A stretch of 37,115 bases of DNA from an uncultured Candidatus Saccharibacteria bacterium (GTDB lineage Bacteria > Patescibacteriota > Saccharimonadia > Saccharimonadales > Saccharimonadaceae), in the NCBI GenBank assembly GCA_947570505.1, contig CANOTH010000009.1:1-37115 (forward strand), written 5' to 3'. Made by a program: the position numbers and the translations under genes. Positions 1 through 37,115 of the stretch are shown here, piece after piece. Position 1 is the first letter of the stretch. Every line of letters starts with the position of its first letter. The notes beneath the pieces are model-generated. The model had not been told where the DNA came from and made no database searches. It saw only the letters and a list, made by a program, of their open reading frames with translations.

Positions 1-55
1 GTTACCTAAGTAACCAATATACCCTGTATTCAAATGGATCGCCCCGCTACGGACG
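1..55. repeat. Left arm of the 55-bp contig-terminal inverted repeat
   Basis: The first 55 bases are the exact reverse complement of 37061-37115; the match stops at base 56. The sequence is the conserved opening of a variable-region cassette. An exact length of 55 also matches a common short-read assembly k-mer, so the arm may mark where an assembly graph branched. It still shows that the same 55-mer adjoins both ends of this segment in opposite orientation. Confidence 0.9.
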
Positions 56-57
56 TT
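1..57 (-). other. Partial variable-region cassette running off the left edge
   Basis: Read on the minus strand from base 57 this encodes VRSGAIHLNTGYIGYLGN and leaves the window. The VRSG opening is that of the cassettes at 3464-3673, 3684-3905, 6057-6263, 36142-36384 and 36681-36887. No start codon or protein body precedes it. It is the same sequence as the plus-strand cassette at the right edge. Confidence 0.7.
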
Positions 58-156: not shown

Positions 157-1014
157 ATGTTAATCGATACGCACTGCCATCTACACGACCCAGAATGGTT
201 TACTAAGGACGAACAACATGAGTTTTTGCAAAAAGCTCACGAAAACAACGTTGAAAAGATGATTTGTATTGGCACAAATCATGAAGATTCCTTGGTAGCG
301 CGCGACTTCGCTCAAAAACATACTAATGTTTACTGGACCTACGGCATCCACCCCGAGTTCGCTACCGGTACAACGACGAATCTGATGGGAACTGAGGCTG
401 ACCACTATGCTTTTCTCGAGACCATCCGTAGCGCCACGAGCGAGGGAGAGGCGGCTTCCGCCCGTAACGACGGGCCGGAAGAACGCCGTGTCTCGAAAAA
501 ATATAGTGGTCAGCAATGGCTTGCATCAGATAAGCTTTGCGCGATTGGTGAAATCGGCTTAGATTACCATTACGACGGCTACGATCGCCTTGCACAAATC
601 AAACTTTTTGAGCAGATGCTACAACTCGCCCTGGATTACAATTTGCCAGTTTCACTTCATCTCCGCGAGGCTTTCGATGATGCTTTTGCAGTGCTTGATA
701 ATTTTCCTCAAACTCGCGGAGTCGTGCACAGTTTTACTGGTTCTAAACGCGATCTCAAACAAGCCCTAGCACGCGACTTCTATATCGGTGTAAACGGGCT
801 GGCAACATACACTACCCCTGCCTTACCTCCGCTAGAACGTATTGTTCTAGAAACCGACGCGCCTTTCCTCACTCCTGCGCCTTATCGCAACGAGAAAAAT
901 GGCCCGCAGTTTATCAAAAATATTGCTGAATATCTGGCTGAAAAATTCCAAACTCCGTTAGAAGAGGTCGCCAAAATAACAACGCAAAACGCCGAGCGAA
1001 TTTTTAAAATTTAA
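157..1014 (+). CDS. tatD: TatD-family metal-dependent hydrolase/DNase
   Basis: TatD proteins are TIM-barrel metallo-hydrolases with DNase activity, acting in the cytosol in DNA repair or turnover. The metal-binding HCHLH motif opens the protein, followed by GEIGLDYHY, HLREAF, HSFTGS and the C-terminal ETDAPFLTP motif, so the active site looks complete. The start at 157 is chosen because MLIDTHCHLH is the usual family start and a -10 box sits 6 nt upstream; a longer reading frame from 34 would run through repeat DNA. About 286 aa. Between GIHPEF and AIGEIGLDY the protein is longer than is usual, and this stretch holds an in-frame palindromic insertion (about 447-494). In actinobacteria tatD neighbours metG, rpfB and ksgA; all four occur in this window. 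Confidence 0.93.
   Translation: MLIDTHCHLHDPEWFTKDEQHEFLQKAHENNVEKMICIGTNHEDSLVARDFAQKHTNVYWTYGIHPEFATGTTTNLMGTEADHYAFLETIRSATSEGEAASARNDGPEERRVSKKYSGQQWLASDKLCAIGEIGLDYHYDGYDRLAQIKLFEQMLQLALDYNLPVSLHLREAFDDAFAVLDNFPQTRGVVHSFTGSKRDLKQALARDFYIGVNGLATYTTPALPPLERIVLETDAPFLTPAPYRNEKNGPQFIKNIAEYLAEKFQTPLEEVAKITTQNAERIFKI
447..494. repeat. Palindromic insertion within tatD
   Basis: Bases 456-494 match 2332-2370 in the cysteine desulfurase gene at 33 of 39 positions. The core folds as CTTCCGCCCGT, loop AACG, ACGGGCCGGAAG, with flanking GGCG/CGCC and GAGA/TCTC pairs. It is read through in frame as a charged, Ala/Arg-rich loop. Confidence 0.65.
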
Positions 1015-3463: not shown

Positions 3464-3673
3464 TTAGTATACCAAACAGCGGACGGGGAAACCGTAAGAG
3501 CGATGCTTACTATTATCTGATGAATTAACGCCAGAAAGATTAAAGCTGAGCTCATAAGCGGTATCGTAAGAGGAAAGATGATAATCACTGGCAATATTAG
3601 ACCAACTATATCCATTACGACCAACATATTTCAAAGAGTTGTAGGCTAAATCAACCCACCCGCTACGGACGAG
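3464..3673 (-). other. Stand-alone variable-region cassette 1 (FISUMP/C-type-lectin-like)
   Basis: Minus-strand translation opens LVRSGWVDLAYNSLKYVG and closes SYGFPVRCLVY-stop (stop at 3464-3466), with no internal stop. The pattern VRSG, GYSW, AYELSFN, GFPVRC is that of the C-terminal domain of Fib_succ_major (FISUMP) proteins, a known class of DGR target. A TGA in frame just upstream and the lack of a start codon mean it is not a normal gene. It diverges from cassette 2 across an inverted repeat. The DNA 3' of the stop holds the shared sequence around CTTAGTATACC. Confidence 0.7.
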
Positions 3674-3697
3674 TTTAGCTCATTTCGTCCGTAGCGG
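3660..3697. repeat. Inverted repeat joining head-to-head cassettes
   Basis: CCGCTACGGACGA (3660-3672) and TTCGTCCGTAGCGG (3684-3697) are inverted copies separated by 11 bp. Each is the conserved opening (F)VRSG of a cassette, so the two cassettes diverge from a short hairpin-forming centre. Confidence 0.8.
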
Positions 3698-3905
3698 AAC
3701 TATACAATTAGATTTCAATCATTATAGCATGTTAAGATCTCTTGGCCGTGACAGTTACGGATGGTTTAATACGACCACTGATTATAGTAGCTCAACCTCA
3801 AGTAATACTAAAGCTTATAATTTTGCCGCCAATGTTTTAGGAATCTACCCATCAAATGGTCCGTGGGAACGTTGGTACGGTTTCTCCGTCCGCTGTTTGG
3901 TATAG
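3684..3905 (+). other. Stand-alone variable-region cassette 2
   Basis: The plus strand encodes FVRSGTIQLDFNHYSMLRSL, then a Ser/Thr/Asn-rich stretch, and closes RWYGFSVRCLV-stop at 3903-3905. It has the same ends as the other cassettes but a quite different middle (WERW at the -RW- site, TTTDYSSSTSSNTKAYNF in the core). No start codon or ribosome binding site is present. It is probably a silent copy or relic rather than an expressed gene. Confidence 0.7.
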
Positions 3906-6056: not shown

Positions 6057-6263
6057 CTAGTATACCAAACAGCGGACGGGGAAACCGTACCAACGAACAT
6101 AGTTAACGGACGAGCCAACATCTGAAGGATTGAAGTAGAGGTAGTAAGCAGTAGCAGAGGTAGGTGACGAGTAAGTACTAGCAACACGAGACCAACCGTC
6201 GCCATCGAAGCCAAAGCTCCTCAGAGCGCTATTATTAAGATTAATCCACCCGCTACGGACGAA
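6057..6263 (-). other. Stand-alone variable-region cassette 3
   Basis: Minus-strand translation runs FVRSGWINLNNSALRSFG through YSSPTSATAYYLYFNPS to RWYGFPVRCLVY-stop (6057-6059). This is a textbook FISUMP C-terminal pattern. Compared with cassette 5 it has 19 amino-acid differences; 17 are in codons with the same third base C or T that can be derived from AAC or AAT. A nominal ATG at 6300-6302 gives an 81-aa frame, but nothing like the N-terminal body of a FISUMP protein precedes it. Confidence 0.75.
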
Positions 6264-6525
6264 GTAAAGAGGCTCTCTAGCTATATTATAGCTACCATTC
6301 ATTAGAATAATCTTTCTTCTTAGTTTGTATGCGCTACTAATTATAAAGATTATTCTTTTATTTGTAGTTATTTCTTCCTGGATTCGTTAAGGAAGCTCAA
6401 ACTCAAACCCCCTCCTCAAAATGAACTTTTTATGCTAAAATTAACCCAAAAGGTCATCGCACAGAAGAATAATTATACCCTATTCTTCCATTATATCACA
6501 GATTACATAAAAAGTCAATATAAAA
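6264..6525. other. Intergenic region before the MFS-like gene
   Basis: No convincing gene. An inverted pair GAAGAATA / TATTCTTC (about 6466-6490) could fold in the leader of the next gene. A TATAAT reading leftward lies near 6286-6291, just before cassette 3, so some transcription through that cassette is possible. Confidence 0.35.
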
Positions 6526-29595: not shown

Positions 29596-30192
29596 CTAGT
29601 CAGTAGTGGAAGCAGTTAAGACTACAGTTGCCTTGTATTCACCAGCAGGTAGACTTGAACCAGCGGTTGCTCCGAAGGCGAGCTTGGTAGTATAGACCTG
29701 CTTATCAGCATTAGTGGTCCAGCCAGCATCTGAATCTGTAACACTCACGACATCTTTGCTGCCTGTAGCTGGCACACCGAACCAGTTGCCCGTATCGTTA
29801 ACTTGGTAACCCCAAGAGTTGGTACCACCAGTTAAAGTAGTGACACCGGCAGCATCTGCAATCGCAGGGATAGAAGTATTGGTTTCGCTATTCATCAAAG
29901 CATTTCCGCTCGGAGCACTAATCTTCAATGAGTAAGCAGTAGCACTGTTGCCAGAAACTGTGACGGTTAATTCATTATCGCCAGCATTCTCACCAGTAGC
30001 GACACCGTTTAGTTTTAGGGTGCCTAGATCAACCTCAGTCTTATCGACGGCGATTGAGATAGCACCTTCAACCGTGGTTTTTACCGTGGTTTCGGTTGGT
30101 ACATCATAAGCATACGAACTCAGTGGCAATGCAGCTACACCAAGACCAGCTACAACACCTAAGACTGCGATAGCTTTTGACATTTTAGACAT
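29596..30192 (-). CDS. Phase-variable secreted surface protein B (predicted OFF)
   Basis: 198 aa. The signal peptide (1-28, MSKMSKAIAVLGVVAGLG... to SSYA) is identical in DNA to that of protein A at 31307-31909. The mature part is an all-beta, Thr/Ser/Val-rich domain with VDLGTL, TVTVSGNSATAYSLKISA, SWGYQ and AGEYKATVVLTAS, a pattern common in small secreted proteins of Saccharibacteria and reminiscent of WxL or pilin-like beta sandwiches; only one Trp motif is seen, so it is not a true WxL protein. AGGAG precedes the ATG. The promoter is incomplete: CATAAT with no -35 in this orientation of the invertible segment. Confidence 0.85.
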   Translation of the reverse strand: MSKMSKAIAVLGVVAGLGVAALPLSSYAYDVPTETTVKTTVEGAISIAVDKTEVDLGTLKLNGVATGENAGDNELTVTVSGNSATAYSLKISAPSGNALMNSETNTSIPAIADAAGVTTLTGGTNSWGYQVNDTGNWFGVPATGSKDVVSVTDSDAGWTTNADKQVYTTKLAFGATAGSSLPAGEYKATVVLTASTTD

Positions 30193-30257
30193 AAATTTCT
30201 CCTTTTGATTTTTGTCTTTTACTTGTTTATTTATATGACCTTTGTAATTGTTATTAT
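30109..30257 (-). repeat. Left 149-bp arm of the invertible segment
   Basis: Exact reverse complement of 31242-31390. Read on the minus strand it runs from five bases of the -10 box (ATAAT) through the leader and AGGAG to the last codon of the signal peptide of protein B. Divergence starts on the next base on both sides. Confidence 0.95.
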
Positions 30258-30286
30258 GTTGATATAAATAACGTTAAAGGAGTAAA

Positions 30287-31189
30287 ATGTCATACCACCT
30301 AGAGCAGGTCACGTCAAAACATAGCCGTATCTATCGACAAGTAGAGAATTATTATATTTATTGTGAACAGATTCGGGGCATGAGCCCAACTACCATGATT
30401 AGCAAAGTCTATACCATTAATCAGTTCATTGCTGTTACTCGTATAACAGATTTGCGCAAACTTTCCAACCGCCAAATCTACGATTGGATTAATTACCAAT
30501 TCAGCCGAGGCAACACTGGGCGCACGATCAATGATCGCTTAGCACATCTTAGGGCAATGTTGCATTGGCAGCAAAATATGAATGTCGTAATGCCCCATTT
30601 GCAGCTGGGTCTGATCACTAAAGCTAAGGAAGTACCGCCGCGCCAAGTTTGTTTTTCACGTCAAGAAATTCAATCCGTCTTAGCTACCGCAGATATCCAA
30701 GAATGGTTGCTGATTAAACTGGCTTTCGATTGCGGTTTACGAATCAGCGAGCTGTGTAAACTACAGCTCAACCATCTTCATGATGATGGCCGCATTTCTA
30801 TTCTCGGCAAAGGCAGTAAAAGGCGGTATGCCTATCTATCGCCCGAAGTGCAGTATAAACTACAGGTCTGGATTGCCGATCATTGCATTAATAAATATCT
30901 TTGGCCTAGCCCAATTTATCCTGATCAGCCACTAGCAACCTGTACCATTCGGCAGAAAATGCGAGATGCTTTTAGTCGGGCCGGGTTCAAGGATTTTCGG
31001 CCACACGATTTGCGACATTCATATGCAACTGATCTTAAGAAAATCGGTATTCCAACCCGTAAGATTCAGGCGGGTCTTGGCCATGCCTCAGAGGCTACTA
31101 CCGAACGATACTTGAGCGATTTGATCGGCTGGGATCTTTATGAGCTCTATCAGCAGAAATATAATTACTCGTCGGTCAGTGAGTGCTAA
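30287..31189 (+). CDS. Tyrosine recombinase (XerC/D-like), predicted invertase of the surface switch
   Basis: 300 aa. An N-terminal SAM-like DNA-binding domain (about 12-100) is followed by the catalytic domain with the full set of residues: R152 (CGLRISELCKL), K175 (GKGSKRR), H240 and R243 (RPHDLRHSYATDL), H266 (GLGHAS) and the nucleophile Y275 (TERYLSD). It cuts and rejoins DNA through a Tyr-DNA link without high-energy cofactors. It sits alone between two perfect inverted repeats, so it probably inverts its own gene together with the adjacent promoter. AAAGGAG (30275-30281) sets the start; TATAAA at 30263-30268 is a weak possible -10. It is not likely to be the chromosome-dimer XerC or XerD because of this setting. 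Confidence 0.92.
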   Translation: MSYHLEQVTSKHSRIYRQVENYYIYCEQIRGMSPTTMISKVYTINQFIAVTRITDLRKLSNRQIYDWINYQFSRGNTGRTINDRLAHLRAMLHWQQNMNVVMPHLQLGLITKAKEVPPRQVCFSRQEIQSVLATADIQEWLLIKLAFDCGLRISELCKLQLNHLHDDGRISILGKGSKRRYAYLSPEVQYKLQVWIADHCINKYLWPSPIYPDQPLATCTIRQKMRDAFSRAGFKDFRPHDLRHSYATDLKKIGIPTRKIQAGLGHASEATTERYLSDLIGWDLYELYQQKYNYSSVSEC

Positions 31190-31217
31190 AAATTGCAAAA
31201 ATTGTGCGAAAAACGTA

Positions 31218-31246
31218 TTGACTTAAGCATAACCATCCTATATAAT
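31218..31246 (+). promoter_or_regulatory. Movable promoter of the inversion switch
   Basis: TTGACT (31218-31223), a 17-bp spacer and TATAAT (31241-31246). The -35, spacer and first T lie in the unique invertible segment; ATAAT belongs to the repeat arm. Inversion would join this -35 to the arm of gene B and leave gene A with CATAAT and no -35. Confidence 0.88.
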
Positions 31247-31390
31247 AACAATTACAAAGGTCATATAAATAAACAAGTAAAAGACAAAAATCAAAAGGAG
31301 AAATTTATGTCTAAAATGTCAAAAGCTATCGCAGTCTTAGGTGTTGTAGCTGGTCTTGGTGTAGCTGCATTGCCACTGAGTTCGTATGCT
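31242..31390 (+). repeat. Right 149-bp arm of the invertible segment
   Basis: Exact reverse complement of 30109-30257. It covers ATAAT of the -10 box, the leader, AGGAG and codons 1-28 of protein A. Perfect identity over 149 bp between genes whose mature parts differ greatly points to continuing exchange between the arms. Confidence 0.95.
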
Positions 31391-31909
31391 GCGGATGCTG
31401 ATGGTGTGATGCCACAATCCGAGAATGTCACTGTGCAAGCAGAGGTTGGCGGTTCTATCTCACTAGAAATTGCCGGTGAGACTGGTAGCAATTTCAATGC
31501 TGACACCAATACTCTCGATTTAGGTAAGATCATCGTTGGCGCCGCTGACCCAATCACTGGTGCTATCAAAGCTACTGTTTCTACTAACGAAACTTTGAAT
31601 TATGCTTTGACTATCCGTACCGCTACAACTGAAACTGCTATGAAGAATGCTAATGGTAACTCGATTCCAGCTGGCGATCCAAAGGGAACCACATCAGCTT
31701 GGGGCTATTCAACTGACAGTGGTACAACCTTCAAGCCTGTACCTGCCACTGCTACTTCACTGTTAGCGACTAATCCAGGTAGCTTGAATGGTACTGGCGA
31801 AACTGCTGCTACAGCTGATACCACCATTACCTTTGGTGTTAAGGCTGATTCTAATCAGGCTCCAGGTGTCTACTCTAACCAAGTAGTTATCACTGCTTCT
31901 GTTAAATAA
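31307..31909 (+). CDS. Phase-variable secreted surface protein A (predicted ON)
   Basis: 200 aa, starting at the ATG (31307) that follows AGGAG. The signal peptide (1-28, ending SSYA) is identical to that of protein B. The mature domain is beta-rich: VTVQAEVGGSISLEI, LDLGKIIVGA, ATVSTNETLNYALTIRT, TSAWGYSTDSG and APGVYSNQVVITASVK, in the same order as in protein B, so the two are distant paralogues with alternative mature sequences. It has no membrane anchor or LPXTG signal and probably binds partners at the surface, perhaps the DUF916-like proteins encoded downstream. A longer frame starting at 31193 is ignored because it crosses the promoter. Confidence 0.88.
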   Translation: MSKMSKAIAVLGVVAGLGVAALPLSSYAADADGVMPQSENVTVQAEVGGSISLEIAGETGSNFNADTNTLDLGKIIVGAADPITGAIKATVSTNETLNYALTIRTATTETAMKNANGNSIPAGDPKGTTSAWGYSTDSGTTFKPVPATATSLLATNPGSLNGTGETAATADTTITFGVKADSNQAPGVYSNQVVITASVK

Positions 31910-36124: not shown

Positions 36125-36149
36125 AATAGACACTTACGTGTCTATTTTT
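36125..36149 (+). terminator. Terminator after tRNA-Val
   Basis: AATAGACAC / GTGTCTATT with a TTAC loop and a T run. Confidence 0.88.
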
Positions 36150-36384
36150 GTTGATTTAAAGATCGGCACCGAACCGCGACATAGGATAGGCGGACGGGGA
36201 AACCGTTCCAACGATTGTTCGGGCCGTGGGACGGGCGAGACTCTGAGGTATTAAACTCAAACCAGTAAGAGTTAGCCAAGGTCGCAGAGGAGTAAGCTAC
36301 AGAGGTACGCGACCAGTCGTAGCCAATGTTGCCCGAGTTCCTCAGTGAGCCGTTGTTCAAGTTGACGTTCCCGCTACGGACGAA
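36142..36384 (-). other. Variable-region cassette 4, asparagine-rich with a different tail
   Basis: Minus-strand translation opens FVRSGNVNLNNGSLRNSG and reaches RWNGFPVR, then departs from the other copies (LSYVAVRCRSLNQQK-stop at 36142). It has eleven Asn codons (AAC or AAT) in about 70 codons, at many of the sites that vary in other copies, so it is the most template-like. A nominal TTG start near 36414 adds SLVPFQYFVRSG, where PFQYFVRSG may be a remnant of the body domain, but a stop lies a few codons further upstream. Confidence 0.7.
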
Positions 36385-36680
36385 GTACTGGAATGGAACC
36401 AGCGAGGTAGTCAATAGAAAAGCTATGAAGCCGGACTATCAGCCACAGCAAAAACGGTCAGAAATAGAATAGTCGTCAGGTTTAGAAGTTGATTTTAAGG
36501 CCCTAAGCCTTGGATTAGGGTGCATTCTAGCCTCTATAACTCTTTTGTAAGCTATGCAGAGGATAACTTCACGATCTTTATATGATTCAGGGAGCTGCTG
36601 GGAGCTGGAGCCAAAACCTCAAAATAGCCCCTTTAGATCCCATAAGCCTTAGGCTTACTAACTCATTTTATCACGTTCAA
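36385..36680. other. Region between cassettes 4 and 5
   Basis: No gene is seen. It holds a hairpin CCCTAA / TTAGGG (about 36502-36521) and a small palindrome TAAGCCTTAGGCTTA (about 36646-36660). The last bases (ACTAGTATACC) begin the 3' flank shared with cassette 3. Confidence 0.5.
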
Positions 36681-36887
36681 CTAGTATACCAAACAGCGGA
36701 CGGGGCGACCGTTCCAACGATTGTAGTTAGCCGACGGGTAAACACCTGAAGGATTGAAGTAGAGGCTGTAAGCATTAGCTGAGGTAGGTGACGAGTAAGG
36801 TTTAGCAGCCCGCGACCAACTGTAGCCAGAGCTGCCGAAGTCTCTCAGAGCACTATTACCAAGATTAACCCACCCGCTACGGACGAA
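36681..36887 (-). other. Stand-alone variable-region cassette 5
   Basis: Minus-strand translation runs FVRSGWVNLGNSALRDFG through YSSPTSANAYSLYFNPSG to RWNGRPVRCLVY-stop (36681-36683). It is the closest relative of cassette 3; the differences are mainly first- and second-base changes in codons ending in C or T. An open frame continues upstream to about 37034, but that part (MTFALGYRFF...) crosses hairpins and shows no FISUMP features. Confidence 0.75.
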
Positions 36888-37058
36888 AAAGGACTGCAAA
36901 TAGTGCAAAAAGTATCTTCTGTACAGGTTTACGTTTTTTAAAAAGTGTAAACCACACTTATCACACATAACAGGGTCAAGACGAAATTTTAGGCTATCAC
37001 TTTTGAAAAAACGATAGCCTAAAGCAAACGTCAATTTATATGACTAAATTAGCATTAC
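36888..37058. other. Spacer between cassettes 5 and 6 with two hairpins
   Basis: GGTTTAC / GTAAACC (about 36918-36947) and an 11-bp stem TTTAGGCTATC / GATAGCCTAAA (36988-36998 and 37013-37023) are the only structures. Nothing gene-like is seen. Confidence 0.5.
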
Positions 37059-37115
37059 TTCGTCCGTAGCGGGGCGATCCATTTGAATACAGGGTATATT
37101 GGTTACTTAGGTAAC
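37059..37115 (+). other. Partial variable-region cassette 6 at the right edge
   Basis: The plus strand encodes FVRSGAIHLNTGYIGYLGN and leaves the window. All sites from VRSG onward are identical to the left-edge copy. Cassettes 5 and 6 point away from each other, as do cassettes 1 and 2. Confidence 0.72.
37061..37115. repeat. Right arm of the 55-bp contig-terminal inverted repeat
   Basis: Exact reverse complement of bases 1-55; the next base inward differs. Confidence 0.9.

What the first reader, a model, noticed from the sequence alone, without database searches (positions are those of the whole stretch)
3464..3905. Head-to-head cassette pair sharing a hairpin centre
Cassettes 1 and 2 diverge from an inverted repeat made of their own conserved opening (3660-3672 and 3684-3697, 11 bp apart). 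Cassettes 5 and 6 are also divergent. Constant ends on both sides of a variable middle could serve as homology for gene conversion; the head-to-head form might also come from a copy-back or inversion event.
Basis: partly seen in the sequence, partly recalled or inferred. Interest (0 to 1): 0.7.

Follow-up and report, generated by a model that had tools for sequence, protein, structure and literature searches.

The report
Scattered spare parts of self-mutating gene
The head-to-head pair is two of about 120 silent, interchangeable copies of the variable tail of one surface-protein gene in a Saccharibacterium, a tail that a reverse-transcriptase system (a diversity-generating retroelement) rewrites at its A's; it may be a write-and-store library for changing a surface-binding protein.

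Summary
The inverted repeat is real: two copies of a conserved 14-bp opening, 11 bp apart, starting two divergent ~205-bp cassettes. The genome (Saccharibacteria MAG, 1.23 Mb) holds about 130 such cassettes. Divergent neighbours exceed convergent ones (16 vs 2 within 250 bp) and several sites share flanks around swapped cassettes. However, the cassettes are not simple gene-conversion donors. They are variable repeats (VRs) of a diversity-generating retroelement (DGR). Differences from five dispersed template repeats (one in this window, 36187-36384) concentrate at template A's (odds ratio 9.9; 14.9 in a relative, p=3e-162). A DGR-type reverse transcriptase (IGxLTSQ motif) is present, and in two relatives it sits next to the template. 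Only one copy is attached to a full gene: the last 70 codons of a secreted FISUMP/C-type-lectin-like protein downstream of infB. The rest are solo VRs without translation signals, yet 116 of 117 stay open in the coding frame. The expressed VR is 100% identical (210 bp) to one solo VR, with identity stopping at the cassette ends. Best reading: a DGR with multiple templates in trans, one expression site and a dispersed silent VR library exchanged through the constant ends. The DGR part is firm; recall of stored VRs is inferred. New variant of a known kind.

The parts
3465..3672 (-). Solo variable repeat (cassette 1 of the finding); VRSG...GFPVRCLVY, no stop
   Evidence: 55 non-A mismatches to the nearest current template, i.e. 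old or from a lost template
3684..3905 (+). Solo variable repeat (cassette 2 of the finding), divergent from cassette 1
3660..3697 (.). Inverted repeat made of the two openings (TCGTCCGTAGCGG, 13-bp stem, 11-bp centre)
6058..6263 (-). Solo variable repeat (cassette 3)
   Evidence: nearest template is on C15; shares long exact blocks with C1:66637 and C30:11879
6264..6297 (-). 34 bp upstream of cassette 3, identical to the coding sequence just before the VR in the expressed gene (...AREPLY): a piece of the expression site carried along
   Evidence: 34 nt, 0 mismatches to the C27:14719 flank
36140..36640 (-). Template-repeat (TR) RNA gene: conserved 5' leader (from about 36579), TR, conserved 3' element. 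Gene limits approximate
   Evidence: leader and 3' element conserved in 7 TRs of 3 species
36187..36384 (-). Template repeat, AAC-rich, with template-type 3' end instead of the VR end
   Evidence: VRs C3:44670, C5:21781, C16:29357, C6:11728 match it best, with mismatches concentrated at its A's
36161..36179 (-). TR 3' element TCGCGGTTCGGTGCCGATC, found in only 4 of 118 genomes of the genus sampled
   Evidence: reversed-pattern control 0
36682..36887 (-). Solo variable repeat (cassette 5 of the finding)
36910..37010 (.). Palindromic spacer between cassette 5 and the partial cassette 6 (H3-type hairpin at 36987)
37059..37115 (+). Start of a further variable repeat, cut by the contig end (cassette 6 of the finding)
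1..57 (-). Start of a further variable repeat, cut by the contig end; identical to 37061-37115 over 55 nt

Best explanation
The cassettes are variable repeats of a diversity-generating retroelement with an unusual layout. Shown by sequence: (1) a DGR-type reverse transcriptase gene away from the templates; (2) five template-repeat RNA genes scattered over the genome, one in this window; (3) one expression site, the last 70 codons of a large secreted FISUMP/C-type-lectin-like protein downstream of infB; (4) about 120 solo copies of just that VR, without translation signals, often in divergent or tandem groups. Inferred mechanism: TR RNA is reverse transcribed with random bases at A's and replaces VR sequence between the constant opening (5' homology) and the constant end (3' homing end). 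VRs are also copied between sites without mutation, with joints in the constant ends. The solo VRs thereby form a store of surface-protein tails that can be overwritten from templates and exchanged with the expression site. Head-to-head pairs are simply two solo VR sites facing away from a common, usually palindromic, spacer.
For: A-directed mismatches: 7 closest VRs A 75/250 vs other bases 46/1108 (odds ratio 9.9, p=1.7e-29), fading with distance; relative G058: 20 VRs, 392/900 vs 156/3160, odds ratio 14.9, p=3e-162, all 17 AAC/AAT codons of the template variable, A going to G, T and C. The G058 expressed VR (first 84 nt, then the contig ends) differs from its template only at 4 A's. RT: homologous to 8ub7 with the IGxLTSQ motif; in G058 and G112 the template lies just downstream of the RT. 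TR leader and 3' element conserved in 7 TRs of 3 species, the 3' element present only in 4 sampled genomes (G000, G055, G058, G112), all with 51 or more scored cassettes. N-terminal 521 aa of the target occur intact once; other cassettes lack them. No solo VR has a start preceded by an SD-like motif, 59 of 116 have no start at all; 1 of 117 has a stop where shuffling gives 105. Unmutated copies: expressed VR = C19 VR, 210 bp, 0 mismatches, identity ending at the cassette ends; also C14=C23, C18=C23, C2=C3. Same flanks, different cassettes: C24/C27 and C11/C28.
Against: Direction of the copying (silent to expressed or the reverse) cannot be read from one assembly. In G058 the readable part of the expressed VR fits a direct template copy, so the silent store is not needed there. 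Open frames of solo VRs could in part reflect recent birth from coding templates whose AAY codons cannot mutate to stops. The genome is a short-read-like MAG (72 contigs, 6.5% contamination) and identical repeats longer than the assembly k-mer are resolved by inference. No expression data.
Confidence: 0.72

Rival explanations
1. Classical silent-cassette gene conversion (as in vlsE or pilE/pilS): variation comes from shuffling stored segments into one expression site by homologous recombination; no mutagenic copying.
For: One expression site, about 120 promoterless partial copies, intact frames, RecA present, exact and mosaic copies.
Against: Mismatches are strongly A-directed relative to identifiable templates; templates are RNA genes with their own leader and a DGR RT is present. 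Shared ends are only 14 and about 25 bp.
Confidence: 0.1
2. Ordinary multi-target DGR plus debris: the solo VRs are dead-end copies of the end of the target gene, spread by segmental duplication or recombination, still hit by retrohoming but with no role in the expressed protein.
For: Solo VRs lack translation signals; some copies are parts of longer duplicated blocks (C23/C21); the G058 expressed VR fits derivation from the template alone.
Against: About 80 to 130 copies kept in at least three species, with stop-free frames even in diverged copies; some pairs differ mainly at synonymous sites (C23:12693/C6:19575, 10 synonymous to 4 changed codons); expressed VR identical to a solo VR.
Confidence: 0.25
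3. The DGR has become a transposon-like element that inserts new VR cassettes next to palindromes by target-primed reverse transcription.
For: Sharp unit ends, dispersal, tandem arrays with about 10-bp spacers, palindromes within 100 bp on the 5' side of cassettes (H1: 14 copies in the genome, 12 near cassettes).
Against: Solo VRs end in TGTTTGGTATACTAGTT (stop codon and following bases of the target gene), which no current template contains, so template cDNA alone cannot have founded them. No empty sites were compared.
Confidence: 0.12

Closest known systems
Diversity-generating retroelements with remote targets (Bordetella phage BPP-1 type; Treponema denticola with 1 TR, 1 RT and up to 7 target genes, PMC4891356)
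   Same: RT with the DGR motif, AAY-rich template, A-directed differences, template and VR differing at the 3' end, VR at the C terminus of a C-type-lectin-like protein, VRs remote from the RT
   Different: Five template genes away from the RT, about 120 VRs of which only one is attached to a full gene; unmutated copying between VR sites; palindromes on the 5' rather than the 3' side
DGRs reported with dozens of TR-VR pairs (PMC6642488, e.g. Pseudomonas costantinii)
   Same: Many VR-like copies
   Different: That case has 97.6% TR-VR identity, few A changes and 21 merged VRs inside one giant adhesin gene; here the copies are dispersed, A-mutated and not part of full genes
vlsE / pilE-pilS silent-cassette antigenic variation
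   Same: One expression site and many promoterless partial copies with constant ends; apparent cassette copying
   Different: Here new sequence is made by an error-prone reverse transcriptase; cassettes are scattered singly or in small groups over the genome
FISUMP proteins (TIGR02145 / PF09603) of Saccharibacteria
   Same: The target is a FISUMP-type protein; genus mates carry several complete FISUMP genes
   Different: In this clade the terminal segment of one of them has become a DGR target with a dispersed library

Membership tests
Diversity-generating retroelement (DGR) | Reverse transcriptase of DGR type with [ILV]GxxxSQ in place of QGxxxSP | tested here: met
   RT C3:1301-2593 has IGNLTSQ aligned with IGSLTSQ of 8ub7 (E 7.8e-21). 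That 8ub7 is the BPP-1 enzyme is from memory.
Diversity-generating retroelement (DGR) | Template repeat and homologous variable repeat(s) | tested here: met
   Five TRs in this genome, RT-adjacent TR in G058 and G112
Diversity-generating retroelement (DGR) | Differences concentrated at template adenines | tested here: met
   Odds ratios 9.9 (own genome) and 14.9 (G058)
Diversity-generating retroelement (DGR) | TR and VR differ at the 3' homing end (IMH vs IMH*) | tested here: met
   TRs: CCGTCCGC-CTATTTT-GTCGCGG; VRs: CCGTCCGCTGTTTGGTATACTAG. Function not tested.
Diversity-generating retroelement (DGR) | Accessory protein (Avd or HRDC) | tested here: inconclusive
   A conserved 331-358-aa ORF precedes and overlaps the RT in three genomes; the G000 copy has no Pfam, NCBIfam, PADLOC or PDB match
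Diversity-generating retroelement (DGR) | C-type-lectin fold of the target, VR at its C terminus | tested here: inconclusive
   Homologue modelled at pLDDT 95.7; nearly all matches are C-type lectins, best Lcl C-terminal domain Z 7.4, also the DGR protein Mtd (1yu0) Z 5.7; Z below 8
Diversity-generating retroelement (DGR) | Hairpin just 3' of the VR (efficiency element, not universal) | tested here: inconclusive
   Perfect stems of 8 bp or more: 6% of VRs downstream, 23% upstream, shuffles 1.4-1.6%
Silent-cassette gene conversion system | One expression site with many promoterless donors | tested here: met
   One full gene, all other copies without translation signals; promoters themselves not tested
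Silent-cassette gene conversion system | Donor to expression-site transfer observed | tested here: inconclusive
   Exact copy C19/C27; direction unknown
Silent-cassette gene conversion system | Variation by shuffling of stored sequence, not by new mutation | tested here: not met
   A-directed mutagenesis
FISUMP domain (TIGR02145) | Score above the curated cut-off | tested here: inconclusive
   E 3e-8, 34.6 bits against a cut-off of 41.65; Pfam model weak

The most novel reading that the evidence does not exclude
A retroelement-written memory: the DGR invents new surface-protein tails at the expression site, tails are deposited as solo VRs at many chromosomal sites, and stored tails are recalled to the expression site (and into template genes, making new templates) through the constant ends. 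This would be a bacterial combination of hypermutation and a heritable repertoire.
Probability: 0.42. Interest if true: 0.92.

Novelty: new variant of a known kind. Interest (0 to 1): 0.78.

Why it matters
DGRs are known for making variants, silent-cassette systems for storing them. A genome under 1.3 Mb of a presumed epibiont that keeps over 100 VR copies for one surface protein suggests that both are combined. It would explain how useful specificities survive ongoing hypermutation, and it makes testable which surface protein of these Saccharibacteria is under the strongest pressure to change (host attachment or phage escape).

Tried and rejected
Pure gene-conversion reading: held until the AAC-codon pattern in G058 and then rejected as the whole story. 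Transposable element with its own ends: no transposase or recombinase was searched for next to cassettes; the ends fit DGR homing. Independent small genes: rejected, no translation signals. The two RTs of the genome: the C22 one belongs to another, phage-like DGR (Lcl_C-type VR) and is not taken as the partner of these cassettes. TR RNA of the window is not more stably folded than shuffles (z -0.39). First structure model with 11 sequences was useless (pLDDT 39). Foldseek alone gave no match below E 0.001. Literature: no paper found on solo VR libraries or on this system in Saccharibacteria; the library lacks most subscription papers. The Gracilibacterium 'hypervariation' paper (PMC6851277) concerns a tandem repeat, not a DGR.

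Full report
OBSERVATION. The inverted repeat at 3660-3697 is exact and not chance. It is made of the openings of two divergent cassettes, 3465-3672 (-) and 3684-3905 (+), in the gap between an mnmA-like and an alaS-like gene (identified by eye from the translations). Both read VRSG...VRCLV without a stop.

GENOME-WIDE. The window is contig C9 of a 1.23-Mb, 72-contig genome whose relatives are Candidatus Saccharibacteria. A cassette query gives 132 matches, including partial ones and two or three doubtful ones. The opening TTCGTCCGTAGCGG is exact in 95 places and the end CCCGTCCGCTGTTTGG in 113 of the stretches read; 116 of 117 complete copies have a length divisible by three. Conservation falls to background about 2 bp before the opening and about 8 bp after the end.

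ONE EXPRESSION SITE. Only one copy lies in a long frame: C27:13153-14934, 593 aa, with a signal-like N terminus, weakly FISUMP. Its first 521 aa occur intact once in the genome; only C24 carries a further 54-aa piece of them and C11 an 18-aa piece. Homologues lie downstream of infB in G058 and G055, and in record L089, which carries the same truncated protein as G112:C19; in each the contig breaks at or inside the VR. The other copies lack translation signals: 59 of 116 have no in-frame start, none has a start with an SD-like motif.

DGR. Six cassettes have another 3' end; five of them share a conserved leader and the 3' element TCGCGGTTCGGTGCCGATC. This element is absent from 114 of 118 genomes of the genus and present in G000 (5 copies), G055, G058 and G112 (one each), all four of which are rich in cassettes; G013 is also rich in cassettes without it. 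In G058 and G112 the element-bearing cassette follows an RT gene; in G000 the RT homologue is on C3, away from the templates. The RT aligns with 8ub7 and has IGNLTSQ, the DGR signature (established knowledge). Mismatches of VRs to templates are A-directed: own genome 75/250 at A against 46/1108 elsewhere in the 7 closest VRs; G058 392/900 against 156/3160 in 20 VRs. The bias weakens in more diverged copies, as expected if templates change or are lost. The readable 84 nt of the G058 expressed VR are a template copy with four A changes and nothing else.

COPYING BETWEEN SITES. The G000 expressed VR is identical over 210 bp to the solo VR C19:7633-7842, with 0 bp (5') and 2 bp (3') of further identity. 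Three more pairs are identical over 190 bp or more between unrelated flanks. Conversely, C24 and C27 share 157 bp upstream and the 3' flank but carry different VRs; C11:404 and C28:3782 share about 165 bp upstream (a TR-type leader) and 143 bp downstream (starting with the expression-site 3' flank) but carry different VRs. Window cassette 3 carries 34 bp of the expressed gene before its opening. These are exchanges with joints in or near the constant ends. Published work shows that 8 bp or more of 5' identity suffices for DGR homing (PMC3240598) and that homing does not need RecA (PMC12875486). An unmutated copy, however, is not what mutagenic homing gives, so a second, DNA-level route is likely (inference). 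RecA is present.

CAVEATS. Contig ends overlap by 55 nt, suggesting a short k-mer assembly. Joins between a flank and the first ~40 bp of a cassette should be read-supported, but the interior of identical 200-bp copies is resolved by inference, so C19 = C27 and the C24/C27 pair need long reads. Stop-free frames (1 of 117 with a stop, 105 expected) are strong, but part of it follows from the AAY design of templates.

ORIENTATION. Within 250 bp: G000 16 divergent, 2 convergent, 17 tandem; G058 14, 1, 14; G112 1, 8, 10. A few pairs are related by duplication, so the counts are not fully independent. Spacers of most divergent pairs contain palindromes. H1 occurs 14 times in the genome; 12 lie within 80 bp of a cassette, 11 of them on its 5' side. 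Perfect stems of 8 bp or more are found upstream of 23% of VRs, against 1.4% in shuffles. Why is unknown.

TARGET FOLD. A homologue (L100, 41% identical to the expressed domain) is modelled at pLDDT 95.7; its matches are C-type lectins, including the DGR protein Mtd. The VR maps to its last 63 residues.

VERDICT. A genuine DGR in a layout for which no published description was found in the library searched; the archive reading is attractive and unproven.

Noticed in passing
window 30102-31397: 156-bp, 98% inverted repeats flank a tyrosine recombinase (30287-31189, PF00589) and lie over the start of two divergent secreted-protein genes with the same N terminus (MSKMSKAIAVLGVVAGLGVAALPLSSYA): looks like an invertible phase-variation module.
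   Followed up: partly
window 440-494 and 2316-2370: A 55-bp repeat (82%) inserted in frame in a tatD-like and a cysteine-desulfurase-like gene, with flanking inverted arms; resembles palindromic in-gene elements.
   Followed up: no
L219 (G000:C22), RT at about 13.5-14.4 kb: A second DGR with an Lcl_C-type variable region on a phage-like contig, possibly contamination.
   Followed up: partly
L031 13153-14934 and L067 (G000:C24:17955-18326): C24 carries the last part of the expressed gene with another VR: a partial copy of the expression site, or an alternative state of it.
   Followed up: partly
G000:C14:25460, C11:298, C28:3676: Three loci have the template leader but a VR-type end: former templates or template-VR chimeras, suggesting that templates themselves are rebuilt by exchange.
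   Followed up: partly
G000, 14 sites of ACTTGTAA-N-TTACAAGT: A short palindrome found almost only beside the 5' side of VR cassettes; role unknown.
   Followed up: partly
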